From assembly GCA_944383545.1 (NCBI GenBank), contig CALWPY010000006.1, forward strand, positions 1 through 64,000: DNA of 64,000 nucleotides. Reading direction: 5' to 3'. Positions 28,025 to 52,895 of the stretch are shown piece by piece (position 1 is the first letter of the stretch; every line of letters starts with the position of its first letter). A program made the translations under genes and the position numbers. The stretch comes from an uncultured Lachnospiraceae bacterium (GTDB taxonomy: Bacteria; Bacillota; Clostridia; Lachnospirales; Lachnospiraceae). The notes beneath the pieces are model-generated. The model made no database searches and had not been told where the DNA came from. It saw nothing but the letters and a program-made list of their open reading frames with translations.

Positions 28025-28063
28025 AAGGGCAATGTAAATTAAATGATTTCCGGAGGAGTTACA

Positions 28064-35565: not shown

Positions 35566-38500
35566 TTAAGTTAAATCATGTAAGTACTGTGTCATCATAA
35601 TCTTAATACGCTGATATACTGTATTTCCTTCCGTATCGGTTACGGCAATTACAATATAAGTATATTCCTGATTATATGGGTCAAAGTATTCAGGTCTTAG
35701 CTGTAATGCTGTTACTAACTCACCATTTATAGTAACATTTCTTGCAACACTTGTATCAACCTGTTTCAAAAGACCACTTGCTACATTATTTGCAGGGTCA
35801 TAATTTGATTCAAATATCAATATATGATTTGCATCATTTGTATATGCACCGGTCTGGTTTGTAAGATAATCAAGGTCATAATATATCTTTACATTTGTGA
35901 TTTCGGTTTCTTCATCAGTGGTTGCCTTATATGCGAATGTCGGTATTGCATTCATGTCATCTACCTTAGCATAATAGCTTCCGTCTGCATCTACCTTTAT
36001 GAAATCACCAAGTTTTTCACCCTGATTGTAGTCATATACATTGATTGTAGGCATCTTAGCACTGTTTCTTACGGAATTACAGATAATATTGATATATAAC
36101 ATTCTTTCATCATTATTATCTTTTCCGATACCCGTTACCTTAGAATGTCCGGCACCGCAGTATGTAATTCCCTTATAGCTGTAAATAAAGTAATTATCTG
36201 CACCGTCATTCGGTGATGCCGCATATATTGATGAATCCTTACCGTTAGTACCTCCCGCAAGAGAATACCAAACTACTAAATCCTCATCCTCTACATCCAG
36301 TACAAAGGTCTGATTGTGAGTTCCTGATATATTAAGTCTTGAACTAATCTTAAACGGATATGAGGTAACTATACCTTCATTATTTTGAGTAGCTCTGTTC
36401 GTACCAAATTTAACATTTGCATCTTCACCGGTAGTATTACTTGCAGCATAAGCCCAATATGCCATATTTGCATATGCAACGTCTGCATACTTATACATAA
36501 GACCTCCTGCATTGGTATTACTTGCAGACTCACCTATTGCTACTATAGGAGTAAGCGCTATCGCACTCAGATACTTATTGGCAGAAACATAATAATTATT
36601 ATTTACCTGCTGATATCTGTAAAGCCACATGCTTGTAGGGTCTGAAGTAAATTTACTAAGCGGACTTATATAGTACTCTGAGCTGTCATATCCGTCTACC
36701 GTCTTATATGGCAGATATATCTGGCTATATGAAGAAGTATCTACGGAACTAAATGCATTGCTGTCAATGAGTATACTTGCTGTACCTTCATTATCAGTTG
36801 TGCCGGAATAATTATTTCCGTTCATGGATACATTTATGCTTCTTCCTGATACAGGATTTCCATTAGGGTCAATTACATTTACAGTTATTATATTTGAGCC
36901 TGTTTCAGTACTGTCTCCAGTTCTTGTTACTGTAGCATCAAAGCTGTTTACTTCATAATTATTTAATTCAAATACGGCAAGACCATTTGCATCTGTAGTT
37001 GCAGTAGCAATAATGTTTGATGCATTTGAAGAATCACCACTGCTGCACATATAAACCCTCATTCCCGATACAGGAGTACCACTATTTGAATAACAATACA
37101 AATTAATGGTAGATGTGCCTATATCTGTCAGAGTCTCATCCTTACTGTTTTCTGTTATGTTATCAAACAGAGTATTATTCCAGCTTGTAAGCCTTGCACT
37201 CAAATCAATACTGTTTGTGTTTCCAGAAATGGTATACGACACTGCACCCCAGTTTTGTTGTGCTCCCGTAAAGTACACCGTCTGACTGTCAAGCTTTGTA
37301 GCCTGTGCCTGCATATCTATTCTGGTTTCTGATGTTGATTTAGATATGGTAGTCGTATATGAGCCCATTCCGGCCACTGATATGGTTGCCTGTGTGTCCG
37401 CATATACCAGTCCCGTACTATCAAGCTCTTCCTCATCAATCTCCATATGCCTTGCGTCCATACCCAAAGCAGCTCTTAAGTCATCAGTAAGATTTACACT
37501 TCCGGTATCGGCAAACTTTGACATTGTATCATGGAAGAGTACCATAGTTCCGTTCTGCTCTACATATTTCAGAAAAGCTTCTGTTCCAATATCCTCTATA
37601 TCTTCTCCTCCAAAGTCCTCTGCCGCACCGATTACAACAGCACTGTAGGTCTCATATATATCCCATATATTTCTGTCTTCTCCAGTTACCGAGCTGAGTC
37701 TGAGATTTTCAATATAGTTATCATAATATGAAAGCTCTTTGTTCTTTGCATTTCTCCATTCAACAAAGTATGTATCAATAGTTTCACCATTTCCAAGAAT
37801 TGCACCGGAAAGTTCATTATATCTGGATGTACCTATCGAATAATAATCATAATATTTGTCGGTATCTAATAATCTTTGAAGCTCATCTCTTAACTCACTT
37901 GCAGTTAATCCGTAAGGTCTTGCATTACTCTCTGTTACATTGTCAATCATACGCTGAATACAGTCTTCAAGTTCTTCAGCAGCAGTTTTTGTTGTTTTGG
38001 AAATACCCGATATTTCTTCGTTTACCAAATCACTTCCCTCTACTGTGCTTGCTCCTGCTTCCTCTTCACGCATAAAGTTGTAAAGCTGCCAGTAATCACT
38101 TGACCTTTCAAAATACTGTCTGGAAGTAATATAGATTGCCTTTTCCATAGTGGTCATGGCATCATATTCTTCCTTATCAGAGTCATCATCTTCCATGGTG
38201 AATCCCTGCACAATACTTTCAGCCTCCGCCTCAGTAAAATTATATGCATCATAAACTTCCTGACACATTTCCTCAAATTGTTCTTCTGTTACTATGTCAA
38301 GCTTAAAATCATAATCATCAGAAAGCTCATCAGCAAGGTTAACGTCCCAATCATCTATACCCGTAATGGTTGTTGAGCCGTTCTCCAGGGTCAGGGTACT
38401 GTCATATTTTACTATACCGAATTTATGTTCATGATAACCGAGAGAATTTGTTCCCAGTCTGGTAATGGTAAGTGACTTTCCTCTTGGATAATCAGGGTCA

Positions 38501-41412
38501 TTTATAGAATCCTCATAATTTCCTCCATATAAAGCCCCAAAGCTTCCTCTGGTTGCATCAGACCACGGATTACCCTGAAGTATCTGATATGCCTGCTGAC
38601 ATTCAGTACACAGATAAAGCGTATTCATACCCTCTGCTCCCTGTCCGCTGTGAGGCATAATCTGAAGCACCTGCACAAGCTGTTTTGCCTCAGGGTCAGG
38701 ATTTGCAACCTTTGAAAGTCCTGAATAAGAAGCACATGCCTCTCCATTAGAATCTGTAACTTCAAATTTCCAGTATACCGGACCATAGAAAGAAGATGAA
38801 AGCTCATATTCAAATGTACCCGATGCGCCTCCCGATGCCTGTCTGAAGACCTCATCTTCACTGAATAAACTGTTTCCGTCATCATCTATATACAGCTTTA
38901 AATTATAACTCGTACTTGAACCTGTAATCTCATACTTAAATTTTAATTTACCACTGGTAAGTATAGAGTCATCATTATTCTGGTCATATAAGCTAGGCAT
39001 ACTTGTAAGTACAAGCTTAGGTCTCTGATTTGATGTAGTTATCAAATCTGCAAGTCTCTGAGCATCACCGTCAGTATTCTCAACTCCGGTCAAATAGTCG
39101 GTTGAATCTCCGATTTTACCTGCAAACACGGTAGCATATCCTTTAACCGTATTCAAACCATACTTTCCGTTTACATTTTCAACCTGTACTGTTTTTTCAT
39201 TGTCAAAATTCCATAAAATGTTGGAATTACCTGCTTCTTCAAGCTCCTTTGCATGAGTAAGGAATTCATACATTTTAGATTCAGGGTCAATCAAATGCTG
39301 CTCTGTCTGCTGCACTACGGCATTCTCATAAGCCTCAGAAACATCTTTACTGAATACAATCGGCATTCCTGCATTAACATATTCAATAAGTTCATCTAAT
39401 TTATCCTGTGTTAAATCGTTTCCTGTCTGAACGCCAAACGAATCCTGTGTAGTACCATTTAAGGTTACATTACCATAGATGGCACCGCCCCTCAAACCGC
39501 CTGAAGAATTAACACCTCCGACATAAAAGGTATACAAATCACCATTATGGTAATACATATTATAGGTTGGTACAAGATTTCTAATATTTGCCTCAGAGCC
39601 CCAGCCAAAGATACGTCCCATTATAAAATAATCTATATCTTTTATTGCTGAATTATTTCCGCCAATATATATAAGGTCATAAGTATCAATAAGCGTATCC
39701 TTATTACAGATAAATTCTTCTGTAGACATCTGAACAAGATTTATCTGGTCATAAGGTATTCCCGTAACATGAGCAATTTTCGCCTTAGAAAGCTCCCATG
39801 CATAATATTCCTGATACTCATCTGATATTTCATCAAGTGTAGTTCCGTTTAATATGGAATCCGGGTCAGTATAATAATTACCTTCGCCATAATAACTTGC
39901 AGCGCTTCCTTCTCTAGGTGTTACCGTTGCAATTCTTAATGCAAGTTCCTCATCTATAGGATAACTTGGCTGAAGTTCAAGCACTGTATACATTGTTGAA
40001 GCATTTCCCTGTCCTCCTATGCCTCTGTACGCACCTGCATTAATTATACTTACAATCGGGGCCATTGTATTTCCTGAAGTAGCTGCAGCAAACATATTCA
40101 CCTGGTCCTGATTAGTTACAAGAATATTTGAATATCTTGCTATTTCTTTGGAAGTTGCCACCATATAAAATAACTCTGCGTAATTTGTATCATTATTTAC
40201 TTCTCCGGTAGTATCATCTGACGTACCTGATACTAACGAAGAATCATAAACCAAATGCTGATTAGCATACATAACACCCGCCAGTTTGTTATATACGGCA
40301 TCACTTATAATAGATGATGCTCCGCAGTCAGCCTCCATAATAATCATGTCATATCCTGACAGATCCATATCTTCAGTTTCATCCATTGATACCGTTTCAA
40401 ATCTTACATATGTAGGTCTTATTTCTCTGGCATTATATCCGTAATTATATAAATCTGAGCCTGCTGATAATACATATGTATTTTCGAGAGTAACTTCATT
40501 TCCTGCAGCATCTGATGCCGTAGCCAGTGTACATGGCTCTGTCAGACCATTCTTAACCATATCCGTAAGTGTGGTATTTGTTGAAGTTTCATCTCTGACT
40601 ATTGTAAGTATTGTTGCAATAGTTTCGTTATTACCGTTATTTTCAACATTAAGCCAATTTGAACTTAAAGTATCACCATGCATAGGAAGGTACATGGAAT
40701 CATTACGGTGGTTAAAAAAGTCTTCTGCACTATTTGTACTGTTCCAGTTAAATGTATATCTGGATGAGCCATAAACTTCAAACAGATTTGTAACAAGCAT
40801 TCCTACTGTCTTAGATGACTGCTTTTCAATTATTTCCGTCTCTGTAGGACTGTCAATCATCATAGGCTTATAATCACCTACCGCAAATGTATGCAGAAGG
40901 GTATATACGTCCTCAGGCAAATCGTTTGATTGTGAATACTGATTTCCCGGCTGGTTGTTTACATATATAAAATCAGCCTGAGACATTTTCTGGAGCGCCT
41001 CTGTCAAATCTACGGCACCTGAATTCAAATCAGCTACTGAATAAAACGTATAATCAATTTTTCCGTCAGGCATTTCACCATCAATAGTTCTGTTTGCATT
41101 GATAACTAATTCCTGGAAAATTGTCTTACCTGATTCATCGGCTGTCACCATACTCTGTAAGGCTGAAGGTGAGCCGGAGCCGATTTCTACTATATGATAT
41201 ACAGTATCTACATCTGCATCTGTAGATGTAGCCGTTTCAATAATTCTGTCAATGTTAGTTTTTGTATTTGATGCAGCTTCAACATCGGTAGTGCCGGAAC
41301 CGGTATTATCATTATTATCGGCAAGAGAGAAAGAAAGTATTGCGACTGTAATAGTCATTATAAGCATTACAGCAAAGGCTGCAATAATTACTCTTTTATT
41401 TACTTTTCCCAT
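35566..41412 (-). CDS. Giant exported protein, candidate pilus-tip adhesin
   Basis: A 1948-aa protein at the 3' end of the pilus operon. An N-terminal helix (about 6-31) serves as signal or anchor, followed by an acidic Ser/Thr/Asn-rich exported chain. Several segments look like alpha/beta class I amidotransferase-like folds without the catalytic Cys (SQADFIYVNNQPG; YDMIIMEADCG; YDLIYIGGN; YSAVVIGAAEDFGGED near 1267). A Cys pair (CTECQQ) lies near 934. Two Ig-like (Big-type) domains lie at about 1425-1560 (DANGLAVFEL, DPNGNPVSGRS). There is no sortase motif. I do not recognise a characterised family. It follows four prepilin-like genes, the place held by PilY1 adhesins in proteobacterial minor-pilin operons, so tip or secreted adhesin is my inference. 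The ATG at 41412 has GGAG 11 bases upstream; a TTG ten codons earlier is possible. Confidence 0.7.
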   Translation of the reverse strand: MGKVNKRVIIAAFAVMLIMTITVAILSFSLADNNDNTGSGTTDVEAASNTKTNIDRIIETATSTDADVDTVYHIVEIGSGSPSALQSMVTADESGKTIFQELVINANRTIDGEMPDGKIDYTFYSVADLNSGAVDLTEALQKMSQADFIYVNNQPGNQYSQSNDLPEDVYTLLHTFAVGDYKPMMIDSPTETEIIEKQSSKTVGMLVTNLFEVYGSSRYTFNWNSTNSAEDFFNHRNDSMYLPMHGDTLSSNWLNVENNGNNETIATILTIVRDETSTNTTLTDMVKNGLTEPCTLATASDAAGNEVTLENTYVLSAGSDLYNYGYNAREIRPTYVRFETVSMDETEDMDLSGYDMIIMEADCGASSIISDAVYNKLAGVMYANQHLVYDSSLVSGTSDDTTGEVNNDTNYAELFYMVATSKEIARYSNILVTNQDQVNMFAAATSGNTMAPIVSIINAGAYRGIGGQGNASTMYTVLELQPSYPIDEELALRIATVTPREGSAASYYGEGNYYTDPDSILNGTTLDEISDEYQEYYAWELSKAKIAHVTGIPYDQINLVQMSTEEFICNKDTLIDTYDLIYIGGNNSAIKDIDYFIMGRIFGWGSEANIRNLVPTYNMYYHNGDLYTFYVGGVNSSGGLRGGAIYGNVTLNGTTQDSFGVQTGNDLTQDKLDELIEYVNAGMPIVFSKDVSEAYENAVVQQTEQHLIDPESKMYEFLTHAKELEEAGNSNILWNFDNEKTVQVENVNGKYGLNTVKGYATVFAGKIGDSTDYLTGVENTDGDAQRLADLITTSNQRPKLVLTSMPSLYDQNNDDSILTSGKLKFKYEITGSSTSYNLKLYIDDDGNSLFSEDEVFRQASGGASGTFEYELSSSFYGPVYWKFEVTDSNGEACASYSGLSKVANPDPEAKQLVQVLQIMPHSGQGAEGMNTLYLCTECQQAYQILQGNPWSDATRGSFGALYGGNYEDSINDPDYPRGKSLTITRLGTNSLGYHEHKFGIVKYDSTLTLENGSTTITGIDDWDVNLADELSDDYDFKLDIVTEEQFEEMCQEVYDAYNFTEAEAESIVQGFTMEDDDSDKEEYDAMTTMEKAIYITSRQYFERSSDYWQLYNFMREEEAGASTVEGSDLVNEEISGISKTTKTAAEELEDCIQRMIDNVTESNARPYGLTASELRDELQRLLDTDKYYDYYSIGTSRYNELSGAILGNGETIDTYFVEWRNAKNKELSYYDNYIENLRLSSVTGEDRNIWDIYETYSAVVIGAAEDFGGEDIEDIGTEAFLKYVEQNGTMVLFHDTMSKFADTGSVNLTDDLRAALGMDARHMEIDEEELDSTGLVYADTQATISVAGMGSYTTTISKSTSETRIDMQAQATKLDSQTVYFTGAQQNWGAVSYTISGNTNSIDLSARLTSWNNTLFDNITENSKDETLTDIGTSTINLYCYSNSGTPVSGMRVYMCSSGDSSNASNIIATATTDANGLAVFELNNYEVNSFDATVTRTGDSTETGSNIITVNVIDPNGNPVSGRSINVSMNGNNYSGTTDNEGTASILIDSNAFSSVDTSSYSQIYLPYKTVDGYDSSEYYISPLSKFTSDPTSMWLYRYQQVNNNYYVSANKYLSAIALTPIVAIGESASNTNAGGLMYKYADVAYANMAYWAYAASNTTGEDANVKFGTNRATQNNEGIVTSYPFKISSRLNISGTHNQTFVLDVEDEDLVVWYSLAGGTNGKDSSIYAASPNDGADNYFIYSYKGITYCGAGHSKVTGIGKDNNDERMLYINIICNSVRNSAKMPTINVYDYNQGEKLGDFIKVDADGSYYAKVDDMNAIPTFAYKATTDEETEITNVKIYYDLDYLTNQTGAYTNDANHILIFESNYDPANNVASGLLKQVDTSVARNVTINGELVTALQLRPEYFDPYNQEYTYIVIAVTDTEGNTVYQRIKIMMTQYLHDLT

Positions 41413-41434
41413 TATTCTTCTCACTCCTTTCCTT

Positions 41435-42256
41435 CTACTCAAAATCCTTTAATACATAAGAATTTCTTATATTGACCATTCCGAGCGTTGTATAACTCAT
41501 GCTCTTATCTGCAAACATAAGCTCAATCCCTATCGAATTGTTTTCTGCATCTACCGTTGCCACTGCACCAGTAACAGTCGTTCCGTCAGCCAGTTCTACA
41601 TAATTTAAAGAAGAAGAATACAACTGATTGGACTTATCAGCTCCTGATGCCGTATCATTTAAGGTGGTCATATATTCATATGTCCTTGAAAGATACATGT
41701 TCTTTCCGTCAAATTCATATACTGCCGTACATGTATCCACAGATAATGCGCTTGCTTCTGACTGTTTATCTGTTGGAACAGCACTTATATCCATCGGCAC
41801 CGCATATTTTATTGTAAGCTTTGTTATATATACCTCTGTATATGATGTAGTTCCTGTATCATAAGTGGTCTTAAGGGTCATAAAATCTGATTTTCCTAAC
41901 TGCTGCTCACTCGGCAACGCTTCGATATCCGACCCTCGCATATAAATAGCTTCACTTACATCTGTTCCTGATACTACAGCTCCCACATTTGTTTCATCAA
42001 ACTCAAACTTATCACCGGATGTAATAACATATCCCTCAAGCCTGATATTCTTTGCCTGCATTATAGCATCGGTAATATTATCATATGTTTCCTGTGCCGA
42101 GTTCTGTACAGTTATATCTGCCTTTGTCTTCTTAAAAGAAGTCATCTGAACTCCCATTAGTCCGCATATAGCCGTCATAAGCAGTGCTAAGATAGCCATG
42201 GCGATAATCAGCTCCACGAGAGTGAATCCGCCATTATTGTTTAGTCTTTTTTTCAA
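41435..42256 (-). CDS. Prepilin-like minor pilin (PilW-like)
   Basis: A 273-aa type IV prepilin-like protein. The class III leader is cut after G10 (NNNGG|FTLVE), giving F1 and E5 in the mature form, followed by a hydrophobic helix (LIIAMAILALLMTAICGL). The C-terminal domain is beta-rich and otherwise unrecognised. The start is TTG at 42256 with GGAG 9 bases upstream. Size and order suggest a PilW/PilJ-type minor pilin. It precedes the giant exported protein by 22 bases. Confidence 0.85.
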   Translation of the reverse strand: MKKRLNNNGGFTLVELIIAMAILALLMTAICGLMGVQMTSFKKTKADITVQNSAQETYDNITDAIMQAKNIRLEGYVITSGDKFEFDETNVGAVVSGTDVSEAIYMRGSDIEALPSEQQLGKSDFMTLKTTYDTGTTSYTEVYITKLTIKYAVPMDISAVPTDKQSEASALSVDTCTAVYEFDGKNMYLSRTYEYMTTLNDTASGADKSNQLYSSSLNYVELADGTTVTGAVATVDAENNSIGIELMFADKSMSYTTLGMVNIRNSYVLKDFE

Positions 42257-42273
42257 CGCTCATCACTCCCATC

Positions 42274-42852
42274 TTATCTCAGCTCATGGCTGCCGTTTTT
42301 TCTTAAGATTACATTTGCAACCATATTGCCATTTCTTTTATAGAAATTATAAGTGCCGTCTCCTTCAATACAGCCACCGTTTCTGCTGTATCTTATTATA
42401 ACTCCACTGTCATCTATATCCGCTTCAGTGCCGCCTGTAGAAGTATAAGTTACCCTTACATATGACGTAAGCGACTTTCCTTTTCCATTGTTATTTGAAT
42501 CCGTTGTACTGTTGAATATATATGTATCATTCGCTACATCATAATAGCCTCTCATTACATAATATATATCTCCATCCTTATACACCCTCAGACAATGGAC
42601 ATAATCTTCATGCATTTCTGCTATTCCGTCACTGTCAGCATCATATGTACATACTGTATTCTTTGATTTTGTTATTAAAGTCGCCACTTCTGAATCAAAT
42701 GTTACAGAAGCCTCCTTAGCCTTGGCTGAATTAATAAGAGTAATTGAAATTCCCGCTGCCATGGAAAGCACAGCAATAATGGCAAGTACAATTATCATTT
42801 CTACCAAAGTATAACCACTATTATTATTTTTTAAATTTTTATAGTTTTTCAT
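42274..42852 (-). CDS. Prepilin-like minor pilin
   Basis: A 192-aa prepilin-like protein. The leader is cut after G13 (NNNSG|YTLVE) with E5 conserved, followed by helix MIIVLAIIAVLSMAAGISI. The globular part has two Cys that could pair (TVCTYD, VHCLRV) and another in NGGCIEGDG. The ATG at 42852 has GAGGTG 6 bases upstream. It resembles GspH/FimT-type minor pilins in size. Confidence 0.85.
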   Translation of the reverse strand: MKNYKNLKNNNSGYTLVEMIIVLAIIAVLSMAAGISITLINSAKAKEASVTFDSEVATLITKSKNTVCTYDADSDGIAEMHEDYVHCLRVYKDGDIYYVMRGYYDVANDTYIFNSTTDSNNNGKGKSLTSYVRVTYTSTGGTEADIDDSGVIIRYSRNGGCIEGDGTYNFYKRNGNMVANVILRKNGSHELR

Positions 42853-42863
42853 AATCGGCACCT

Positions 42864-45683
42864 CTATTCTACATTCTTCATCCAGTTGTCATATCTTACA
42901 ACATCTGAATAATCTATAGCATCAATAGTTTTAGTGTCCGTTGAAACTTCAGTATTTTCATTTTCAGAATCTTCATAACCCTTAAAGAGCGACAATACAA
43001 ATTTTGCGTTATCACTTCCATCAAGCTGACATTCTCTCAGAATGGCCTTGCAGACTTCAGCGTTTGCTGACATGGTGGTAAGCTGGTTATTTATATAAAT
43101 CTTACCTCCAGATACTATAAGACCTTCAAATTTAACTACACTTGCATCAAAGGTTATATCTCCCTTGGATAAGATTATTCCTCTTACAATTCCGTCACCA
43201 TCATAATCATTTATTGCTAAATCTCCACCTACCCATACCGAATATCCTGAATTAAGATTTAATACATCTGAGCCATTGTCCGTATCAGACATTTTAGGTC
43301 TGATAAAAGTTGTTGCTGTAATCTTATTAAAATTAAAATACCTGTTTATAGGTGTGATTGATGCTTCACCGCGGTCGTTTACAAGATTTTCTACATATAT
43401 TGCCTCACTGTCAGCTGCCGATAAATCCATTAAAGCCCACTTAACATAGTTATAATGGCTCTCATAAGTATCCGAAGCATTAATAAGGTCTGTAGGTGTA
43501 ACCGATACAGATGTCTCACCCAGAAGAGCCGTCGGTATATTTATATCCTTCTGAGAAACAATATTAAATGAAGTACCCGATTTTGAAGTAATCGCACCAC
43601 TTGAATATATAGTGGCAGCACCAATTTCAGATGTTGTATCAGGAAGAATTATATTTCCCGATTCAAAATCCTCATAATTAGTAATATCCGTAAGATAATC
43701 GCTTATGGAACTGAGTGGATTATTAAGTTCCGCCACATAGTCAATTATAAATCCCTCCGCCATATCTTCAGCAGAATCAAAAGTTCCCGTAGGTGAAATC
43801 TGTCCGCTCTCATACATTTCATAAGCTGTTTCAAAATCAATGTAATAATACATTTTTCCTGAAACCGATACACCTATACATGGGATACTCTGCGTATCTC
43901 CAAAATATTTGGTAAACAAAGTACTGCCGGTCAATGCAGGATGAAGTGTTGCCAGATAATAATCTTCTCCCTCAACAGCAGTAGGCACACCCATATATGT
44001 TATAGGTATATATGCCACCTGACTTACCTTGGTCGAAATACTTTCTCCTGTCTTATAATCCTGAGAAGCACTGTTATATGTATAAGTTTCTCTCTTAACA
44101 TTTTCAGGCTCGTCAACTGTTCCTATATTATCATCATACTCAGAAATAGTCTTTGAAAGCTCTATGTATGAACGGCCGGCAAGAAAAATCACTTCTGTTC
44201 TTGATAAATCAAGAGTTGCATCTTCACCGTTAACTATAATTGCACTACTGTTATAATGTCCTCTGTTAGCTGTAGTTCCATCCGAATCCGTATACTGGAA
44301 ATCAGCCGTATCAACAGTAGGAATAAATGTTCTGTCATCTTTGCTTGTACTGTCACCATATCCATAATAAGAGCCATATAAGCTGAAAGATGCGCTGTCA
44401 GCATTTACTTCCAAATCATCTCTTACATACATGTTAGCCCTTAAAACAGCAGTTGCACTGTTTACAGAAGCATTAGCAGTTGTAGTCGCTGTCGTATTTG
44501 CCCTTGTATATCCTCCAAGTACTACATTATCCGCCCAGATTTCTGCAGTAGATACCGTATTTCCATTACTTCCGTAAACCGAAAGAGAGCCTGTATTAAA
44601 TACAGATATAGTACCCGGAACTATAATGGTCTCGGCCATAACTGAAACATCAGAACCATTAACATAAAAACCTGAATATTTACTAAGTTCATTTACTCCG
44701 TCATAATATTGTAATGGTGCTCCTTCATTATTAGCCGCATAGTTTTTGTTATAATAAGTATTTACTCCGGAAGCACCGTCTTCATATTGATTAAATGTTA
44801 CGCTTCCCAGATAATAATCGAAATCTTCCCCATTTATAGTCTGGCTGTATTCTGCATATTCGGCATATTCATCATCAGAAATATCAGAATACATATTCTG
44901 ATTATAATCCTTGTTATAATAATCCGCCGCCGCGTATATATTTCCGTTTATGGTAAGCGGAACGCTTGGCTCCTGATTAACTTCAACTCCTGAATCAGCT
45001 ATCATGGCAAAGTCAAATACATTTGCATAGTCCACATTTACACTGTTAAAATTTACCGTAAAATCCGGTCTTCCTATGACTATGTCAGTCGTAATTGTTT
45101 GTGTATAAGTGTCATTAGCTGTCGAACGGCTGTATTCAACTGTTCTTGTCAGTTTTACATTTCTTATAACAATTCTGTCTAGCGCTTCTCCACTTGTCCA
45201 TGCCTCTCCATTTGCATTCAGTTTTTCAACTCTTATGGCAGATTTATCAAGCTTTACCGTGTCATTTGATATGTACTTTTCAAGCTCATTTGCAATTTCT
45301 GCATTAAAATAGGTGGATGTTGCCATTTCCTCCATGAACTTATCTTTAAACAAGTTATTTGCGGCATCATCACCAATGTTAACATATGCACCCTCAGCTA
45401 AATCGTATCTTACCATGTTTTCAACGGTATATGAATAAGCTTCCTTCATGTATTCAACTGTCTGATTGCCTACACCTGCGTAAATCTCATCCATCGCCTG
45501 TTCAACATAATAGAAATTGTCTCTGGCATTATAATCATATAACTTAAGCCTGTAAACATATCCTACCGCTGAAAGAAGCGCTCCTACAAGAATTCCGACA
45601 AAAGCCAGTGCAACAACCACAAGTACAAGACTAGAGCCGGAGTTATCCAATTTTTTGTGAAGCTTTTTTATTATTTTCTTCAA
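42864..45683 (-). CDS. 939-aa PilX/GspK-like giant minor pilin
   Basis: A 939-aa protein with a prepilin-like N-terminus (NSG|SSLVLVVVALAFVGIL). It lacks E5 (Leu at mature position 5), as GspK-type initiating pseudopilins lack it. The helix is followed by a PilX-like region (YYVEQAMDEIYAGVG) and a very long Asn/Thr/Tyr/Asp-rich beta region. That region has short repeats suggestive of a beta-solenoid (GTISVFNTGSLSVYG, ADNVVLGGY, GGDLAINDYDGDGIVRG, KGDITFDASVVKFEG). PilX proteins are usually below 250 aa. It lies directly before the small minor pilin (11 bases) and one base after the PilV-like gene. Confidence 0.75.
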   Translation of the reverse strand: MKKIIKKLHKKLDNSGSSLVLVVVALAFVGILVGALLSAVGYVYRLKLYDYNARDNFYYVEQAMDEIYAGVGNQTVEYMKEAYSYTVENMVRYDLAEGAYVNIGDDAANNLFKDKFMEEMATSTYFNAEIANELEKYISNDTVKLDKSAIRVEKLNANGEAWTSGEALDRIVIRNVKLTRTVEYSRSTANDTYTQTITTDIVIGRPDFTVNFNSVNVDYANVFDFAMIADSGVEVNQEPSVPLTINGNIYAAADYYNKDYNQNMYSDISDDEYAEYAEYSQTINGEDFDYYLGSVTFNQYEDGASGVNTYYNKNYAANNEGAPLQYYDGVNELSKYSGFYVNGSDVSVMAETIIVPGTISVFNTGSLSVYGSNGNTVSTAEIWADNVVLGGYTRANTTATTTANASVNSATAVLRANMYVRDDLEVNADSASFSLYGSYYGYGDSTSKDDRTFIPTVDTADFQYTDSDGTTANRGHYNSSAIIVNGEDATLDLSRTEVIFLAGRSYIELSKTISEYDDNIGTVDEPENVKRETYTYNSASQDYKTGESISTKVSQVAYIPITYMGVPTAVEGEDYYLATLHPALTGSTLFTKYFGDTQSIPCIGVSVSGKMYYYIDFETAYEMYESGQISPTGTFDSAEDMAEGFIIDYVAELNNPLSSISDYLTDITNYEDFESGNIILPDTTSEIGAATIYSSGAITSKSGTSFNIVSQKDINIPTALLGETSVSVTPTDLINASDTYESHYNYVKWALMDLSAADSEAIYVENLVNDRGEASITPINRYFNFNKITATTFIRPKMSDTDNGSDVLNLNSGYSVWVGGDLAINDYDGDGIVRGIILSKGDITFDASVVKFEGLIVSGGKIYINNQLTTMSANAEVCKAILRECQLDGSDNAKFVLSLFKGYEDSENENTEVSTDTKTIDAIDYSDVVRYDNWMKNVE

Positions 45684-47333
45684 TTAATTAGCCCCCTTTG
45701 CACCTGTGAATGTTGTTTCGCTGCCTGATATCACATCACCATCATCATCTGTTCTGAACAGCCTTACCGTAACCGAATAAAGTCGTCCGTCATATCTTGT
45801 ATCTTCTGAAATCGGCTTGATATAATCCGACCTTGTCGTGTCTGACGTATCCTCTGAATATTCAGGATATCCTGTAAGTTCAGTTCCGTCAGGATTTTTT
45901 AAATTAGGTATATACGTCAAACCGCTTAGTATCTGCGAAAATTCAAAGGACTGTGCCATATTCATATTACTGCCGTCGCCTTCAATGTTCAGATTTGTAT
46001 AAATCATAAGTGGCTCGGTGCTTTTTGAAGGGTCCGTAAAATTAATCTGATTAATATATATTGTTACAGGACTCCATACACCGCCTGATACATTAGTCCA
46101 AAATACATTGTCTGAATATGCGCTCATATCATAACTGTTTGCGTCCTGCTTTACCGTAAGCTGTGAATTATCAGGTTTAATAAGATAAAGCTTTGCATCC
46201 TTTGAAGCTTCATCATTATATACAGTTATATAATCTCGACCTGCATACTGTGCGGTTGAATCAGTTGATTCCTCAACAAAAGGCTCATATATAAAGTAAA
46301 TATCCGGAGCTTCATTTGTATAAAAGCGCTGTGAATATACATTATAATTAAGTATATCCGTTACATCAACCGAATTACCGTTTCTTACCATTTTAGTACT
46401 TTCAGTATCTACTTCAACAAATCCCGGGTCAGGAGTTATGGAAATTGTATAAACATCACTGTAATATATATCACATGAAACATCATAATACGTCTTTCCG
46501 TCAGCCTCACCGCTGGTAATGGAAATCTTCGTAAATTTATTTGTACTTTCTCTAAAGTCTGCAGCACTAAATATAGATTCACCCTCTGTGTGATTCATAG
46601 CCTGCTCCCATGAACTATATGAAATCTGCTTCAGGTGACTCATCTTAAGAGCATAGAACTCAGATTCCGCCTGCTCATCAGAATTTGAAGCAACACCTTG
46701 TATAATGGCTACCTTTGTGCTGTCCAAATCCTGAACATAACCAAGATTCACTTCGTTCGGGTCAACATAACCTGAAGCTTCTGCATTCTGTTCACATATA
46801 ATATCTATTATATGATTATTACTGTCATATTTAACACAGCTTCCTTCATTTGTAAATGTATACCCATTCGACTGAAGAGCAGAGGTCTCGTCATCCGTAA
46901 AATCATATTTTACGTTAAAATCGTTGGCAAGGAGTCTGTTTGATAAATCATCTATCGAAACAGTACGGTTATATTCATTTTGATCTCTTCCCAAATTTTT
47001 CGAGTCAAGCACATAATCAGTAACCGTATATGAAACTGATGAGGACAATGTACTTCCCTCGACATTATGTACCTCACAGCTTACAGTAGTGGAAACAGGA
47101 GTTCCCGCTACTGTAACAGCCCCGTCTGCACCAATATCATCTATATCAGTTTTTTGGAAATATTCCAGAACATATTCTGCATTTTCTACTACATACTGTT
47201 TTTCCTTAGCCTGTGAGTTGACCCTTATAGACTGGACTAACTGCACAATAATCGGGGAAAGTAGTAATGTCAAAACGGCTATGGCTATAACAATTTCTAT
47301 CAAACTGAAACCTTTATTATTCTTTTTTGTCAT
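45684..47333 (-). CDS. Large prepilin-like protein (PilV-like)
   Basis: A 549-aa prepilin-like protein with leader NNKG|FSLIE, E5 conserved, and a helix (IVIAIAVLTLLLSPIIVQLV). The rest is an extracytoplasmic beta-rich domain of unknown family (SVSYTVTDYVLDSKNLG, VYTISITPDPGFVEVDTEST). It is much larger than a normal PilV (about 150-200 aa). The ATG at 47333 has GGAG 8 bases upstream. It follows the PilO-like gene by 16 bases. Confidence 0.8.
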   Translation of the reverse strand: MTKKNNKGFSLIEIVIAIAVLTLLLSPIIVQLVQSIRVNSQAKEKQYVVENAEYVLEYFQKTDIDDIGADGAVTVAGTPVSTTVSCEVHNVEGSTLSSSVSYTVTDYVLDSKNLGRDQNEYNRTVSIDDLSNRLLANDFNVKYDFTDDETSALQSNGYTFTNEGSCVKYDSNNHIIDIICEQNAEASGYVDPNEVNLGYVQDLDSTKVAIIQGVASNSDEQAESEFYALKMSHLKQISYSSWEQAMNHTEGESIFSAADFRESTNKFTKISITSGEADGKTYYDVSCDIYYSDVYTISITPDPGFVEVDTESTKMVRNGNSVDVTDILNYNVYSQRFYTNEAPDIYFIYEPFVEESTDSTAQYAGRDYITVYNDEASKDAKLYLIKPDNSQLTVKQDANSYDMSAYSDNVFWTNVSGGVWSPVTIYINQINFTDPSKSTEPLMIYTNLNIEGDGSNMNMAQSFEFSQILSGLTYIPNLKNPDGTELTGYPEYSEDTSDTTRSDYIKPISEDTRYDGRLYSVTVRLFRTDDDGDVISGSETTFTGAKGAN

Positions 47334-47349
47334 AGCGTTCACTCCAATC

Positions 47350-48474
47350 CTAATATACCTTTACCACACCTGACCTGTTTACTATTCTAAATCTTGGTGA
47401 TGCAGAATCGTCATCAACAACCTTAAAGAATACCGGCATTGATGTAGTATTTGAAACAGTTACGTTCACTCCGTTTGTATCATCTGCATTCACTCTTTCC
47501 GAAGACTGTACATATATGGTCACATCATCTGTAAGTATTTCCTGCTCGTATGACTCATCACCGATTTCATATGATACGAAATTCTTTCCTTCTGCTGTAT
47601 ACACTGAAATGGTAAGGTCTACTGCCTCATTTGCATTTGATGTTACATATGTATCTTCATCGCCGTCATCAGCAGCAACGATAATTCCTGATGCAGCATC
47701 ATTATTTGCATCATTTAACATAATTGTCAGATTGTTATCAGTTATTATAGATTCTCCGTTATCCGAATCATATTCATATGTTACAGATGCAGAGGAGGAT
47801 GCAGAGCCACTTCCGCCTACAAATATGTTGTCAACACCTGTCGGAACATCTACATCAACCGTATCTGCTTCTCTTCCAGGACCGCTTATTGAATATAAAT
47901 TAAGGCCAACTGTTCCCGCACATGTTCCCTCTTCTAAATTATATGTTGCAGTAATAGATGAAATATTCATTCTGTATCTGTAGTTAGCTATGTAATCCAT
48001 AAAATCTTTTAAGCTTTCATATGTTCCTGTATATGAAATACTATACTCACCTGTATTACATACATAACTGTCTTCCGTAATTAATTCTTCGTCTACAACC
48101 TGCTCTCCTTCTTCCATTCCCTGTCCTAATACATAGAACTGAGAATCTCTTGGAAGTGCCACAGTCTGATTTACAAAATCAAACTGTTCTTCAATGCCCT
48201 TCATAAACATTACTGTTACTTCCTGATTCAATTCAGCTGGATAATATGCAAGCATTTCATCAAACTGTTGGTTATATTCTTCCGTTTCCTGAAGCAACTG
48301 TTCTCTGTTTGCTTCCTTTGCCTTTAAATCATTATATCTCGCTTCAAGAGTTTCAATTTCACTGTCTAATGTATCATTATCCTGCTGTGTAGGACTATAT
48401 ACATACATATATGCAATGAGTAATATAGCAATTGCTGCTACAACAAGTAATAATTTCTTATTAGAATCTGTCAT
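47350..48474 (-). CDS. pilO: PilO-like pilus alignment protein with C-terminal extension
   Basis: A 374-aa protein. An N-terminal helix (LLLVVAAIAILLIAYMYVY) is followed by a coiled coil (DSEIETLEARYNDLKAKEANREQ, about 38-60) and a ferredoxin-like PilO domain (EYSISYTGTYESLKDFMDYI; MNISSITATY) to about 200. A Ser/Asp-rich extension of some 170 residues, probably outside the membrane, is added. Typical PilO is about 200 aa. PilO with PilM and PilN joins the cytoplasmic motor to the pilus. The assignment rests on order and topology. Confidence 0.75.
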   Translation of the reverse strand: MTDSNKKLLLVVAAIAILLIAYMYVYSPTQQDNDTLDSEIETLEARYNDLKAKEANREQLLQETEEYNQQFDEMLAYYPAELNQEVTVMFMKGIEEQFDFVNQTVALPRDSQFYVLGQGMEEGEQVVDEELITEDSYVCNTGEYSISYTGTYESLKDFMDYIANYRYRMNISSITATYNLEEGTCAGTVGLNLYSISGPGREADTVDVDVPTGVDNIFVGGSGSASSSASVTYEYDSDNGESIITDNNLTIMLNDANNDAASGIIVAADDGDEDTYVTSNANEAVDLTISVYTAEGKNFVSYEIGDESYEQEILTDDVTIYVQSSERVNADDTNGVNVTVSNTTSMPVFFKVVDDDSASPRFRIVNRSGVVKVY

Positions 48475-48503: not shown

Positions 48504-50108
48504 CTACTCAACCACTACTTCTTCCGATGCTTCCTCTTCAAGACCGGCAAATGGATTAGTATATACACATGTCAAAGAGAAATTAAATATCGTCTGTCCT
48601 GTCACTTCATCCGTTGACTGACTAAATGCTGAAAGATATACATCATCTATACATTCTATCGTTTTAAGATTAACTATAAATTCTGCAATATCATCATAGC
48701 TTGTAGCAACTCCCGGTATTGATACGAGGTCACTGGTAGAGTTAAAACTTGTTATATATATGTTTGAAGGAATTTTTTCCTCAAGCTCATTGATAAATGT
48801 CAGTGCATTTTCATTTAATTCATATGTAGATGCATTCATTGTTACAATGTCAGTATATTTTGCCTGAGCTGCATCATGCTCCGTAATAATCTGTTCAATA
48901 TCGCTTATTGCAGCAATATCCGCCTCAAGTCTGGCAACTTCTTCTTCTTTACTGTTTTTCTGTGCAAGTGCATAGAAAGACGCGCCTGCCGCTATAAGAG
49001 CAGCCGCCACTACAACCGCTATATATGGTGTAAGACCGACATCTGATTTTACCTTTTCAGCTCCCTGCGGCACAAATCCCATAGGATTCATGGCAGCACC
49101 GATAGGAGTTACAAGATATACAGGGCTGTATACCTTAAGGTCGATGCTTGGGTCAAATTTAACATTATACAAGCTGTCCATAATTCTTGCAGATACATTG
49201 AGCTGTATCTTAAAGAGTCCGTCTATTCCTCTGATTAACGCACCGTCTCCTGTAAGGAATACATCATCAATAGGATTATCAGGATTTTTGCTTGCATAAT
49301 AATCCATTACACGTCCGATATTGTTAATAAGGTATCTGAAAGCTCCCGTAGCCTCATTATCATCAAAGTCTACGGTAATTATTCTGTCATTCTGAAGCAT
49401 TGTCATGGCAGTGGTAGCATCCACTCCTTTTTCATCCATTACAACATTTACTACAGAGTTTGTACCATAAGGTACTGTTCTTTGAAGAAGAAGCTTGTCA
49501 CCGCATACTATATTAAGTACGGTTGACTCACTTCCTAACTGGATTACCATTGTGGTAGCATTTGCCACGGTCTGTGTCTTGATTAACTGAAGCATACTGT
49601 TTCCGATATAATCAAGATTCTGCACCTTAAGTCCGCAGGCAGCTCCTAACTCATAATACGACTTAACCATCTGTGCAGGTGCGGCAACCGCAAGAACTCT
49701 CATCTGTTTTGCGCCTTCTGCATCTGTCGTTGTTTCAAGCAGCGTATGAGAAACCACATAATCCTCTATATTTACAGGGAAATAATCTGATGAATTAGCA
49801 TTTATGATTCCTCTGATTTTATTCTCTTTTACAAAAGGTATAACAACCTCTCTTGTTACAATCTTTGTAGAATTCATAACAAGTATTGCATTTTTGTTTG
49901 ATATTCCCGCAGCGGCAAGCTGATTTTTTATTTCCGCCGCAATTCTTTCCGAATCCTTAATCACTCCGTCTTCATATGAGTCCTCAGGAGTCTCAAATAT
50001 AAGAACTCTGTGAATATAAGTCTGCTTCTTCTGTGAAGCTGTAATTTCAATAATAGTTATACTTTCATTCGCAATGTCTATTGATAAGACCTTATTACTC
50101 TTTGCCAT
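48504..50108 (-). CDS. pilM: PilM-PilN fusion protein
   Basis: A 534-aa protein joining two usually separate T4P components. Residues 1-345 are an actin-like PilM (VLSIDIANESITIIEI at the start; VIQLGSESTVLNIV; FLTGDGALIRGIDGLF). A membrane helix (361-383), a coiled coil (386-420) and a C-terminal PilN-like domain (NELEEKIPSNIYITSF) follow. Separate PilN begins with a conserved INLLP peptide that docks into PilM. Here the linker reads GFVPQGAEKVK at that position, so the contact may be made within one chain. It sits between pilD and pilO. Confidence 0.88.
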   Translation of the reverse strand: MAKSNKVLSIDIANESITIIEITASQKKQTYIHRVLIFETPEDSYEDGVIKDSERIAAEIKNQLAAAGISNKNAILVMNSTKIVTREVVIPFVKENKIRGIINANSSDYFPVNIEDYVVSHTLLETTTDAEGAKQMRVLAVAAPAQMVKSYYELGAACGLKVQNLDYIGNSMLQLIKTQTVANATTMVIQLGSESTVLNIVCGDKLLLQRTVPYGTNSVVNVVMDEKGVDATTAMTMLQNDRIITVDFDDNEATGAFRYLINNIGRVMDYYASKNPDNPIDDVFLTGDGALIRGIDGLFKIQLNVSARIMDSLYNVKFDPSIDLKVYSPVYLVTPIGAAMNPMGFVPQGAEKVKSDVGLTPYIAVVVAAALIAAGASFYALAQKNSKEEEVARLEADIAAISDIEQIITEHDAAQAKYTDIVTMNASTYELNENALTFINELEEKIPSNIYITSFNSTSDLVSIPGVATSYDDIAEFIVNLKTIECIDDVYLSAFSQSTDEVTGQTIFNFSLTCVYTNPFAGLEEEASEEVVVE

Positions 50109-50148: not shown

Positions 50149-50907
50149 TTAGGACCAAATGCCCACTATACCCAGGTACCAGCTTACAAGCTGCTCACCC
50201 CATATCATTGCTATGAAAACGCCCGCAGATAAATACGGACCGAAAGCCAGAACTTTGTCTGTCTTTTTAATTGCCATTATGGAGAGATGAATTACCGAGC
50301 CCAGTATACATCCCATCATAAGTGCTACAACATTGAGCTGCCAGCCCAATAGTAAGCCGGTTGCTGCCATAAGTTTAACGTCGCCGCCTCCTATGCCCCT
50401 GCCATTAGTTACAATTAACAGGAGATATAAAAAACCGCTGACTGCAAACAAACCGATTACATACTGACTCCAGTTACCCAAATCGGTAACAAGTCTAATC
50501 AGTCCTAAGAATAAAATAAATATATTGAATCCCACAGGAATTTCATATGTGCGCCAGTCTATGACGCTTATGCATATCAAGGCAGAAGTACACAGACAGT
50601 AAAGAAAAGTTTCAACAGTGACGCCCTTAACGAGGTATAACAGGACGTATAATAATCCATTCAGAAATTCCACCAGAGGATACTGAAGTGAAATTTTTTC
50701 TTTACAATGTCTGCACTTTCCACCTAAAATTATGTAGCTTATTATCGGTATCATTTCATACCACTTAAGTTTCGTTTTGCAGCTCATACATATCGACGGT
50801 GCAAAAAGTTTTCTTTCTTTTTCCGGAACTCTTATAATAAGAACATTAAGCAGACTGCCTATAAATATACCGTATAAGAAAAATACCAAGCAAAACTTAA
50901 ATACCAT
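50149..50907 (-). CDS. pilD: Prepilin peptidase (leader peptidase and N-methyltransferase)
   Basis: A 252-aa membrane aspartyl protease that trims and methylates prepilins. The N-terminal cytoplasmic loop has two CxxC pairs (SICMSCK; KCRHCKEK), typical of bifunctional enzymes. The two catalytic Asp lie in VIDWRTYEIP and GGGDVKLM. About seven helices follow. The ATG at 50907 has GGAAGGT 8 bases upstream. All five prepilin-like proteins in this operon are candidate substrates. Confidence 0.93.
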   Translation of the reverse strand: MVFKFCLVFFLYGIFIGSLLNVLIIRVPEKERKLFAPSICMSCKTKLKWYEMIPIISYIILGGKCRHCKEKISLQYPLVEFLNGLLYVLLYLVKGVTVETFLYCLCTSALICISVIDWRTYEIPVGFNIFILFLGLIRLVTDLGNWSQYVIGLFAVSGFLYLLLIVTNGRGIGGGDVKLMAATGLLLGWQLNVVALMMGCILGSVIHLSIMAIKKTDKVLAFGPYLSAGVFIAMIWGEQLVSWYLGIVGIWS

Positions 50908-51006: not shown

Positions 51007-51456
51007 TTACTTGTAAGATGCATCAATTTCAGGCTGTAATATCCATGAATTGCCATTTCCAGAAACAGCTACCTGAATTTCACCGTTAGAGCCAAGAGTT
51101 ACAAGAAATTCTCTTGCACCATCTTTTGTATAGCTTACTGAAGGCTTTGTGCTTAAGTTACTTGCAACTTCCTGTGAAAATACAGTTCCGGCTGCTTCCA
51201 CTATAGACTTGTTTGAAATTCTTAAAAGTGTAGCGCCTGTAGAAAGTCCTGCGATTTCGGCATTAGCCGTTTCATTTGCCATAGCTGTATCAACAGCTGT
51301 CTTGATTGTCTTTGCTGCTGTTACGTCATTTGACTTTCTTGACTTATCAATGTATCTGATAAGCGCAGGAGCGATAGCTGCTGCAAGGATAGCCATAATG
51401 GCAATAACGATGATAAGTTCTACGAGTGAGAAACCTTTGTTGTTCATTTTCTTCAT
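51007..51456 (-). CDS. pilA: Major type IV pilin
   Basis: A 149-aa prepilin. The leader MKKMNNKG is cut before FSLVELIIVIAIMAIL, giving F1 and E5 and a 141-aa mature pilin. An Ala-rich helix and a small C-terminal domain without Cys follow. The size, strong AAGGAGAG site and own promoter region suggest that this is the abundant shaft subunit. It lies between pilC and pilD, with a strong hairpin after it. Confidence 0.93.
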   Translation of the reverse strand: MKKMNNKGFSLVELIIVIAIMAILAAAIAPALIRYIDKSRKSNDVTAAKTIKTAVDTAMANETANAEIAGLSTGATLLRISNKSIVEAAGTVFSQEVASNLSTKPSVSYTKDGAREFLVTLGSNGEIQVAVSGNGNSWILQPEIDASYK

Positions 51457-51520
51457 AATTTTTCTCTCCTTTTTATTAAATTTATATATATCCTGCCCCC
51501 TCGTCCGGCAGAGTATATTC

Positions 51521-51559
51521 ATTATAATATATGATACTTTCCGGTATTATTTCCGGTAT
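51521..51559 (-). promoter_or_regulatory. Candidate pilA promoter with tandem direct repeats
   Basis: On the minus strand TATAAT (51521-51526) lies 65 bases before the pilA start. No recognisable -35 exists; instead a 10-base sequence (ATACCGGAAA on the minus strand) occurs twice, 12 bases apart, at 51538-51547 and 51550-51559. A direct repeat overlapping a missing -35 suggests an activator site. Confidence 0.45.
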
Positions 51560-52764: not shown

Positions 52765-52895
52765 TACCATTCCTCCGACCCATTAAATTTTTCTGATTCC
52801 TTCGTTTATTTTTACAGCATATATTTAAATATTTCACAATATATTCACCAAAAAACAACTGAAGATTTACATAACTTTCTATAGTGATATACCTT

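What the first reader, a model, noticed from the sequence alone, without database searches (positions are those of the whole stretch)
35566..47333. Giant exported protein at the PilY1 position of a Gram-positive T4P operon
Four prepilin-like genes are followed directly by a 1948-aa exported protein with Ig-like and amidotransferase-like segments and no sortase motif. In proteobacteria the order fimU-pilV-pilW-pilX-pilY1 encodes a tip-priming complex with a large adhesin. The sequence shows similar topology and order, without recognisable PilY1 homology. My inference is an independently evolved tip or secreted adhesin loaded by the minor pilins.
Basis: partly seen in the sequence, partly recalled or inferred. 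Interest (0 to 1): 0.75.

Follow-up and report, generated by a model that had tools for sequence, protein, structure and literature searches.

The report
Giant pilus-tip candidate in Gram-positive bacteria
A very large secreted protein of unknown function is encoded right behind the type IV pilus genes in most relatives examined, where Gram-negative bacteria keep their pilus-tip adhesin, so it is probably a separately evolved tip protein of Gram-positive pili.

Summary
One strand carries pilB-pilT-pilC-pilA-pilD-pilMN-pilO, four prepilins and a 1948-aa exported protein, in that order. The giant belongs to Pfam DUF5057 (PF16480, 63.4 bits, cut-off 27.9). It has no credible PDB relative by sequence, and no paper of the held library contains the family name.

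It is strongly tied to type IV pili. Of 164 distinct DUF5057-type proteins, 11 lie at contig edges. Of the other 153, 144 have a pil gene directly upstream and 4 more have T4P genes in the region. The four pilins show the pattern of the known tip complex: three with Glu5 and one without. The giants have an export signal, no sortase anchor and a conserved core. A few members add adhesive, lectin-like or Ig-like modules.

Best explanation: a monoderm counterpart of PilY1, built from unrelated domains, carried on the minor-pilin tip and presenting swappable binding modules. The pilus link is shown. PMC9934059 states that PilC/PilY1 is absent in monoderms (passage).

The parts
35566..41412 (-). 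Giant exported protein, 1948 aa, DUF5057 family; last gene of the T4P operon
   Evidence: synteny
41320..41412 (-). N-terminal export signal of the giant (about residues 1-31, placed by eye)
   Evidence: sequence; motif scan of 154 distinct relatives: all have a hydrophobic stretch, 135 an AXA-like site
38632..39420 (-). Pfam DUF5057 match (residues 665-927)
   Evidence: 63.4 bits against a cut-off of 27.9
36745..37122 (-). Lineage-variable Ig-like insert of the giant (residues 1431-1556), Big_1 (below cut-off) and DUF7382 matches
   Evidence: column occupancy about 6-34% among 74 rows (window and 73 relatives)
36073..36387 (-). Most conserved segment of the giant (residues 1676-1780), second half of a split alpha/beta domain (fold inferred)
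41435..42256 (-). mp4, prepilin 273 aa with Glu5 (PilW/J-like by elimination; inferred)
   Evidence: N_methyl 35 bits
42274..42861 (-). mp3, prepilin 195 aa with Glu5 (FimU/H-like; inferred)
   Evidence: N_methyl 34 bits
42864..45683 (-). mp2, prepilin-like 939 aa lacking Glu5 (PilX/GspK-like tip-cap candidate)
45684..47342 (-). mp1, prepilin 552 aa with Glu5 (PilV/I-like; inferred); ATG start possible at 47333
   Evidence: (ComGE-like 2.3e-08, 34 bits, below its cut-off of 49)
47350..48474 (-). PilO-like protein
   Evidence: PilO 20 bits (below cut-off 22)
48504..50108 (-). PilM-PilN fusion
50149..50907 (-). PilD prepilin peptidase (named from sequence, recalled)
   Evidence: sequence; ortholog profile
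51007..51522 (-). Major pilin PilA (class III signal GFSLVE, read by eye)
51562..52770 (-). PilC platform protein (named from sequence, recalled)
   Evidence: ortholog profile
53002..54054 (-). PilT-type ATPase (T2SSE family; PilT by recall)
   Evidence: PF00437
54085..55803 (-). PilB-type ATPase (T2SSE family; PilB by recall)
   Evidence: PF00437
35490..35538 (.). Perfect 20-bp inverted repeat with T run beyond the giant, terminator-like

Best explanation
The giant is the non-pilin tip protein of a monoderm type IV pilus, in the role that PilC/PilY1 has in diderms, but made of unrelated domains. Proposed steps: (1) Sec export by a type I-like signal [motif level]; (2) capture on the outer face of the membrane by the complex of four minor pilins, with the Glu5-less mp2 as cap [inferred]; (3) the complex primes the filament and is pushed out at its tip by PilB, and pulled back by PilT [inferred]; (4) the conserved core (tandem alpha/beta domains, DUF5057 beta domain, split C-terminal domain) is the carrier [inferred], and lineage-specific Ig, lectin or adhesive modules inserted in it or added behind it bind surfaces or glycans [modules seen in a few members, binding inferred].
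For: Linkage: 144 of 153 evaluable distinct genes have a pil gene directly upstream on the same strand; 4 more have T4P genes in the region, one of them a tandem second giant (L100) and three divergent from the operon (L223-L225). The gene is last in the window's operon, which closes with a terminator-like repeat. Tip-complex pattern: Glu5 in 156 of 159 mp1 (the other 3 Asp), 147 of 147 mp3 and 163 of 163 mp4; for mp2 Gly-1 in 153 of 153 and Glu5 in 0 of 153, one Asp. [quoted passage not shown] PMC9934059, passages). Export without an anchor: of 154 distinct giants of 800 aa or more with an N-terminus, all have a hydrophobic stretch and 135 an AXA-like site; of the 146 with a complete C-terminus 0 have a strict sortase motif and none a real C-terminal membrane span (the single regex hit, L223, is a Thr/Ser/Gly-rich stretch). 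Modules: pAdhesive_15 in L223 (E 4.7e-40) and in 2 of the 28 members of A9 (best 8.5e-50); in A9 also List_Bact repeat 2, Big_2 2, CBM26 1 (E 1.7e-04), ricin-type lectin 1 (E 2.1e-04); SHIRT 1 and GEVED 1 of 31; F5/8 type C 1 (E 2.5e-06) and Big_1 2 of 24. Of the six neighbours compared, divergence tracks mp2 most closely (r 0.888; partial on pilM 0.575; 54 loci). T4P loci without a giant have a longer last pilin (median 455 aa, n=11, against 293.5 aa, n=142; p 0.011), as if the modules sat on the pilin instead.
Against: No structure could be computed, so no interface with the pilins was tested. No binding or localisation data exist in what I saw. The giant is not universal: 11 of 20 T4P loci sampled without a DUF5057 hit have no protein of 900 aa or more directly behind the last pilin, so it is not a required part of the machine. 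Four loci (L071, L127, L128, L228) have a DUF5057-type gene without T4P genes in the region; L071 is a full-length member (1315 aa), the matches in the other three are weak or partial. Most members, by Pfam, show no recognised ligand-binding module, and the CBM26 and ricin matches are weak. The Mantel correlations partly reflect shared ancestry. 18% of giant-bearing loci also have a last pilin above 400 aa, so the two are not strict alternatives.
Confidence: 0.6

Rival explanations
1. The T4P machine works here as a secretion device and the giant is its released substrate (like the soluble effectors that T4b pili and T2SS pass out), an extracellular enzyme or matrix protein rather than a tip subunit.
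For: No wall or membrane anchor in 146 giants with a complete C-terminus and an AXA-like site in 135 of 154. Short gene distance to the machine. PulA and TcpF are listed with PilC1/PilC2 as non-pilin tip-located effectors in PMC10191384 Table 1 (passages).
Against: Monoderms have no outer membrane to cross, so Sec export alone would release it (recalled). No enzyme domain was recognised by Pfam in the window giant or in the 83 members of A4, A9 and A10. The adhesive and lectin-like modules of a few members fit binding better.
Confidence: 0.18
2. The giant is a membrane- or wall-resident assembly factor, for example a guide through the thick wall, and never reaches the tip.
For: The N-terminal hydrophobic stretch could stay as an anchor in the 19 of 154 giants without an AXA-like site. 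Monoderm machines lack the outer-membrane components (PMC10191384, passages).
Against: T4P loci with the same pilM-pilO-pilins order lack it (11 of 20 sampled). Complete giants over 800 aa vary from 858 to 3304 aa, and the insert varies by lineage, unlike a conduit.
Confidence: 0.1
3. The giant is the tip receptor for DNA in a pilus used for transformation.
For: In L071 the giant stands between comM and dprA, followed by topA (Pfam). topA-like genes recur downstream of T4P operons in relatives (similarity; order). mp1 has weak ComGE-like similarity.
Against: The window operon is not followed by those genes. No DNA-binding domain was recognised in the scans. Lectin-like and starch-binding matches in single relatives point elsewhere.
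Confidence: 0.07

Closest known systems
PilC/PilY1 (Pfam PF05567), non-pilin tip protein of diderm T4aP
   Same: Very large, exported by a type I-like signal, not a pilin, encoded with a set of four minor pilins of which one lacks Glu5; modular
   Different: No PF05567 propeller match. The conserved core is DUF5057 plus tandem alpha/beta domains. The host is monoderm. Pilin order differs. Optional among T4P loci.
Modular tip pilins of monoderms (Streptococcus sanguinis PilB, PilC; PMC8179133, PMC9934059, passages read)
   Same: Carrier plus swappable binding modules (vWA, Ig, lectin) presented at the tip of a monoderm pilus
   Different: The giant has no class III prepilin signal, so it is not a pilin; it would have to be held by pilins. 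In these loci the last pilin is itself sometimes large (up to 1145 aa).
Pfam DUF5057 (PF16480)
   Same: Member above the curated cut-off
   Different: The family has no known function, and no paper of the held library contains its name.
GATase1-like superfamily (ThuA, GATase1_like, GldG/ABC_transp_aux)
   Same: The split domain aligns in register with these families; best single pairwise values 8e-05 (GldG), 4e-04 (GATase1_like), 0.007 (ThuA)
   Different: Similarity is weak and depends on the profile used: with the broad profile GldG falls to 0.054. No enzyme activity is claimed; catalytic residues were not tested.

Membership tests
PilC/PilY1 | C-terminal PilY1 beta-propeller domain (PF05567) | tested here: not met
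   No PF05567 hit in the window giant at E up to 1 nor among the 83 relatives of A4, A9, A10 at E up to 0.01 or 0.001. No PilY1 was scanned as a positive control. The genome search found 0 of 150, but no control genome rang, so that search shows nothing.
PilC/PilY1 | Type I signal peptide, non-pilin | tested here: met
   Motif scan only: 154 of 154 distinct giants of 800 aa or more have a hydrophobic stretch, 135 an AXA-like site. A stricter run-of-residues pattern missed L067, L083 and the 652-aa L048. No SignalP was available.
PilC/PilY1 | Encoded with four minor pilins, one of them (K/PilX) lacking Glu5 | tested here: met
PilC/PilY1 | Located at the pilus tip and bound to the minor pilins | not testable with these tools
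Modular type IV pilin | Class III prepilin signal (N_methyl) at the N-terminus | tested here: not met
   No N_methyl match in the giant at E up to 1
Sortase-anchored surface adhesin | C-terminal LPXTG-type motif with hydrophobic tail | tested here: not met
   0 of 146 distinct giants with a complete C-terminus by a strict pattern; one LPATE without tail (L069) by a looser one
DUF5057 (PF16480) | Match over the curated cut-off | tested here: met
   63.4 bits against 27.9
GATase1-like superfamily | Significant profile similarity to known members | tested here: inconclusive
   Best of 24 comparisons: 61% with GldG and 35% with GATase1_like (window-clade profile dD), 5.7% with ThuA; broad profile DE 21% with GATase1_like and 1% with GldG. 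Known pairs of the superfamily gave 29-96%. Nulls, run with DE and C4 only, were at most 0.3% for 11 T4P families.
GATase1-like superfamily | Catalytic cysteine and histidine | not tested
   No structure or curated site alignment was available
HIJK tip complex (mp1-mp4) | Three minor pilins with Glu5 and one without | tested here: met
HIJK tip complex (mp1-mp4) | Sequence homology of mp2 to PilX/GspK | tested here: inconclusive
   PilX_N in 2 of 33 members, best E 0.051

The most novel reading that the evidence does not exclude
Bacillota evolved their own large non-pilin tip adhesin family for type IV pili, with a carrier core unrelated to PilY1 that docks on a Glu5-less minor pilin and displays swappable modules. 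A role held to be absent in monoderms would then have arisen at least twice.
Probability: 0.5. Interest if true: 0.85.

Novelty: new variant of a known kind. Interest (0 to 1): 0.72.

Why it matters
Diderm T4P carry the huge non-pilin adhesin PilC/PilY1 at the tip (PMC10191384, passages); PMC9934059 states that it is absent in monoderms, where modular pilins serve in the one model studied there (passages). A DUF5057 giant at the matching gene position in gut and rumen Lachnospiraceae (record titles) would give a named candidate for how these commensals attach, a function for an uncharacterised Pfam family, and a second case for testing what a tip protein must do (prime, stop retraction, bind) independent of the PilY1 fold.

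Tried and rejected
Amidotransferase enzyme: no Pfam GATase match in the giant; only weak fold-level similarity, so an enzyme is not claimed. Results against that fold reading: the broad profile DE gives only 1% with GldG and 5.7% with ThuA, and the profiles dA, dB and dC of the earlier repeats give 0.1-5.5% with all three families. PDB relatives by sequence: none for the window giant. Profile hits look like chance: a designed protein and 14-3-3, E 0.11 or worse; BceA and TFIIE beta, E 0.38 or worse; BceA, E 0.005, with A4, not followed up. The first genome-contig scan with the single protein found no relative; the alignment scan gave 73 loci. A negative reading, that T4P loci without a DUF5057 hit simply lack the protein, was partly overturned: three of the large proteins standing there (L130, L133, L144) are distant relatives (hhalign 87-98%, single-comparison E 3.8e-06 to 5e-14; four unrelated proteins and five shuffled ones E 0.018 or worse), L132 is weak (45%, E 2e-04) but related to L133 (E about 1e-23 to 1e-22), and L135 shows no similarity. 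None of L130, L132, L133, L144 has a Pfam match at E up to 0.01. A calcium-loop idea (D-x-N-x-D-G in the DUF5057 domain, consensus) was left as a lead: a loose pattern fits 92 of 154 giants, and the parallel in PilY1 is recalled. Absence of PF05567 in Lachnospiraceae (0 of 150) is not used, since no control rang.

Limits of the counts: linkage was measured from the giant's side. 'DUF5057-type' means found by iterated profile search with the window giant plus L122, a Pfam hit missed by that search and added by hand; in the Pfam scans DUF5057 itself matched 31 of 31, 27 of 28 and 21 of 24 members. Pil genes were named by profiles seeded with the window's proteins; duplicates were removed by identical 200-aa stretches. 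The 652-aa L048 protein (directly behind pilC, no visible signal) and the 397-aa L228 ORF were left out of the signal count. The last-pilin lengths of the 11 no-giant loci were read by eye and typed into. Of these 11, L142 has a 1699-aa protein with an LPETG-type end one gene further on, and the 540- and 542-aa ORFs behind the last pilin in L140 and L141 were not identified. A2 and A3 used 63 of 71 and 62 of 67 relatives listed; rows with poor mapping were dropped. Mantel tests used the 54 loci complete for seven families. The GATase1_like alignment held six sequences, two of them fragments.
Full report
OBSERVATION. The reading is right in gene order, strand, sizes and features. From pilB to the giant the operon runs on one strand, with intergenic gaps of at most about 230 bases. 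The giant's ATG lies 22 bases behind the stop of the last pilin, and a perfect 20-bp inverted repeat with a T run follows the giant. The genome (2.26 Mb, 99.87% complete) has one copy.

IDENTITY. The giant matches Pfam DUF5057 at 63.4 bits against a cut-off of 27.9, residues 665-927; Ig-like families match weakly between 1444 and 1556, DUF7382 just over its cut-off. NCBIfam has nothing. No solved structure matches by sequence, nor do profiles built from relatives give a credible hit. No paper in the held library contains the word DUF5057.

DISTRIBUTION. PF16480 occurs in 80 of 397 genomes of the window's family, 23 of 344 of its order, 19 of them in the same family, and 5 of 348 of its phylum, 2 in the same family and 3 in one other family with 5.6-6.8 Mb genomes. 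None of the 14 control genomes has it.

NEIGHBOURHOOD. I read 86 regions from genome-search hits, 73 named loci from the genome collection and 14 more. Named carriers include Eubacterium ruminantium ATCC 17233 (L185) and Lachnospiraceae bacterium NC2004 (L222). Some genes appear in both sets. After removing duplicates there are 164 distinct DUF5057-type proteins, the window's included: 144 have a pil gene directly upstream on the same strand (mp4 in 137 of 144 before removal of duplicates), 4 more have T4P genes in the region (one second tandem copy, L100; three divergent from a pilB-led operon, L223-L225, genes named by eye), 11 are at contig edges and 5 (four loci) have no T4P gene in the region. 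So 148 of 153 evaluable genes are pilus-linked. Complete giants over 800 aa run from 858 to 3304 aa, median 1762 (n=146).

THE FOUR PILINS. In an alignment of N-termini, mp1 has Glu5 in 156 of 159 (Asp in 3), mp3 in 147 of 147 and mp4 in 163 of 163; mp2 has the cleavage Gly in 153 of 153 and Glu5 in 0 of 153 (M 56, L 29, V 20, I 16, T 16, S 6, F 4, A 4, N 1, D 1). N_methyl matches 24 of 24 mp1, 24 of 24 mp3 and 28 of 28 mp4 members scanned at E up to 0.1; for mp2, PilX_N matches 2 of 33, weakly. In the literature the K/PilX subunit lacks Glu5 and caps the HIJK complex, and PilY1 binds that complex (PMC7541494, PMC9934059; passages). The window's order puts the Glu5-less pilin second, unlike fimU-pilV-pilW-pilX. 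The assignment of mp1, mp3 and mp4 to I, H and J is inference.

ANATOMY OF THE GIANT. Export signal: 154 of 154 distinct giants of 800 aa or more have a hydrophobic N-terminal stretch, 135 an AXA-like site behind it (motif scans, not SignalP; a stricter pattern missed L067 and L083). Of 146 with a complete C-terminus none has a strict sortase motif. The most conserved part is residues 1676-1775; the stretch 1341-1560 is present in roughly 5-34% of 74 rows, so Ig-like modules come and go inside a split domain. Internal repeats: the domain starting VLEIEP and the split domain starting VLQI are homologous (hhalign 96%, single-comparison E 3.8e-09), and earlier segments also resemble each other (81% and 58%). 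Against known families the first half of the split domain aligns in register with GldG and GATase1_like (8e-05 and 4e-04 with the window-clade profile) and the whole with ThuA (0.007); with the broad profile the values are 0.054, 0.001 and 0.007. Eleven T4P families as nulls gave 0.24 or worse with the broad profile; nulls were not run with the window-clade profile. I take this as a likely GATase1-like fold, unproven.

MODULES IN RELATIVES. Among 83 relatives scanned in three sets of 31 (E up to 0.01), 28 and 24 (E up to 0.001), Pfam finds SHIRT in 1 and GEVED in 1; pAdhesive_15 in 2, List_Bact repeat in 2, Big_2 in 2, CBM26 in 1, ricin-type lectin in 1 and Y_Y_Y in 1; Big_1 in 2 and F5/8 type C in 1. 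L223, outside these sets, has pAdhesive_15 at E 4.7e-40. Two further single matches (HEPN_Toprim_N, Trypan_PARP) look like chance. Most members have no recognised module beyond DUF5057.

T4P LOCI WITHOUT A DUF5057 HIT. Of 20 sampled, three were truncated (L134, L145, L148) and one (L149) was of another type. Of the other 16, four carry a diverged relative or a likely one (L130, L132, L133, L144), one a large exported protein without similarity (L135), and 11 no protein of 900 aa or more directly behind the last pilin. In those 11 the last pilin is longer (median 455 against 293.5 aa, p 0.011). This fits modules sitting either on a pilin or on the giant, though 18% of giant-bearing loci also have a last pilin above 400 aa.

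MECHANISM. The best reading is a carrier-plus-effector tip protein in the sense PMC8179133 uses for PilC/PilY1 and modular pilins (passages): exported, held by the minor-pilin cap, pushed out at the filament tip, binding with variable modules. Shown: linkage, pilin pattern, export signal, lack of anchor, module variety in a few members. Inferred: docking, tip location, ligand binding. Divergence of the giant tracks that of mp2 best (r 0.888, partial on pilM 0.575; mp1 0.858 and 0.451; mp4 0.810 and 0.306; mp3 0.743 and 0.249; pilO 0.824 and 0.228; pilM 0.834; 54 loci), which agrees with a contact to mp2 but does not prove it.

NOVELTY. PMC9934059 states that PilC/PilY1 is 'absent in monoderms' (passage). 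Literature searches (T4P with Lachnospiraceae and minor pilin; PilY1 with Gram-positive and adhesin; T4P with Butyrivibrio and Roseburia; T4P with Clostridia, PilV and PilK; PilY1 with Bacillota; T4P with Lachnospiraceae, adhesin, pilM; type 4 pili with monoderm, PilY1, Clostridium; E. ruminantium with T4P) listed no paper whose title or shown abstract describes this gene. These are listings only, and two were cut (25 of 58, 12 of 163). Only open PubMed Central papers were searched. I file it as a new variant of a known kind: a non-pilin tip effector, not a PilY1 family member.

Noticed in passing
L071:11181-19999; by gene lengths and topA similarity also L045, L051, L130, L221: comM-dprA-topA genes stand downstream of the T4P operon and giant position in several relatives; in L071 the giant sits between comM and dprA without the pil genes. 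Hints at a link of these pili with DNA uptake. All three genes were Pfam-checked only in L071; elsewhere topA by similarity, comM and dprA by length alone.
   Followed up: partly
L136:9222-16649: A 2475-aa gene with a weak prepilin N-terminus (N_methyl 16.8 bits, cut-off 21.2) and a GLUG motif in a T4P locus without a giant: a possible record-size modular pilin.
   Followed up: partly
window 42864-45683 and orthologs: The Glu5-less pilin is itself 566-1275 aa long in giant-bearing loci (n=136); 3 of 33 orthologs show weak bactofilin-like matches, best E 0.0018.
   Followed up: partly
L228:4805-10558: Two DUF5057-related ORFs (1454 and 397 aa) among genes that look like sugar-nucleotide and glycosyltransferase genes (by eye), with no T4P genes in the region.
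   Followed up: no
L100:10170-20000: Two DUF5057 giants in tandem behind one minor-pilin set, as if a pilus could choose between two tip proteins.
   Followed up: no
L142:1143-6242: A 1699-aa protein with an LPETG-type C-terminus stands one gene behind the pilins of a T4P locus without a giant.
   Followed up: no
window 28043-33127: A 1694-aa YfhO family membrane protein with six matching stretches, looking like a tandem duplication.
   Followed up: no
own genome G000:C8:57595-57870: A GATase1_like (PF07090) match inside a 1502-aa open frame.
   Followed up: no
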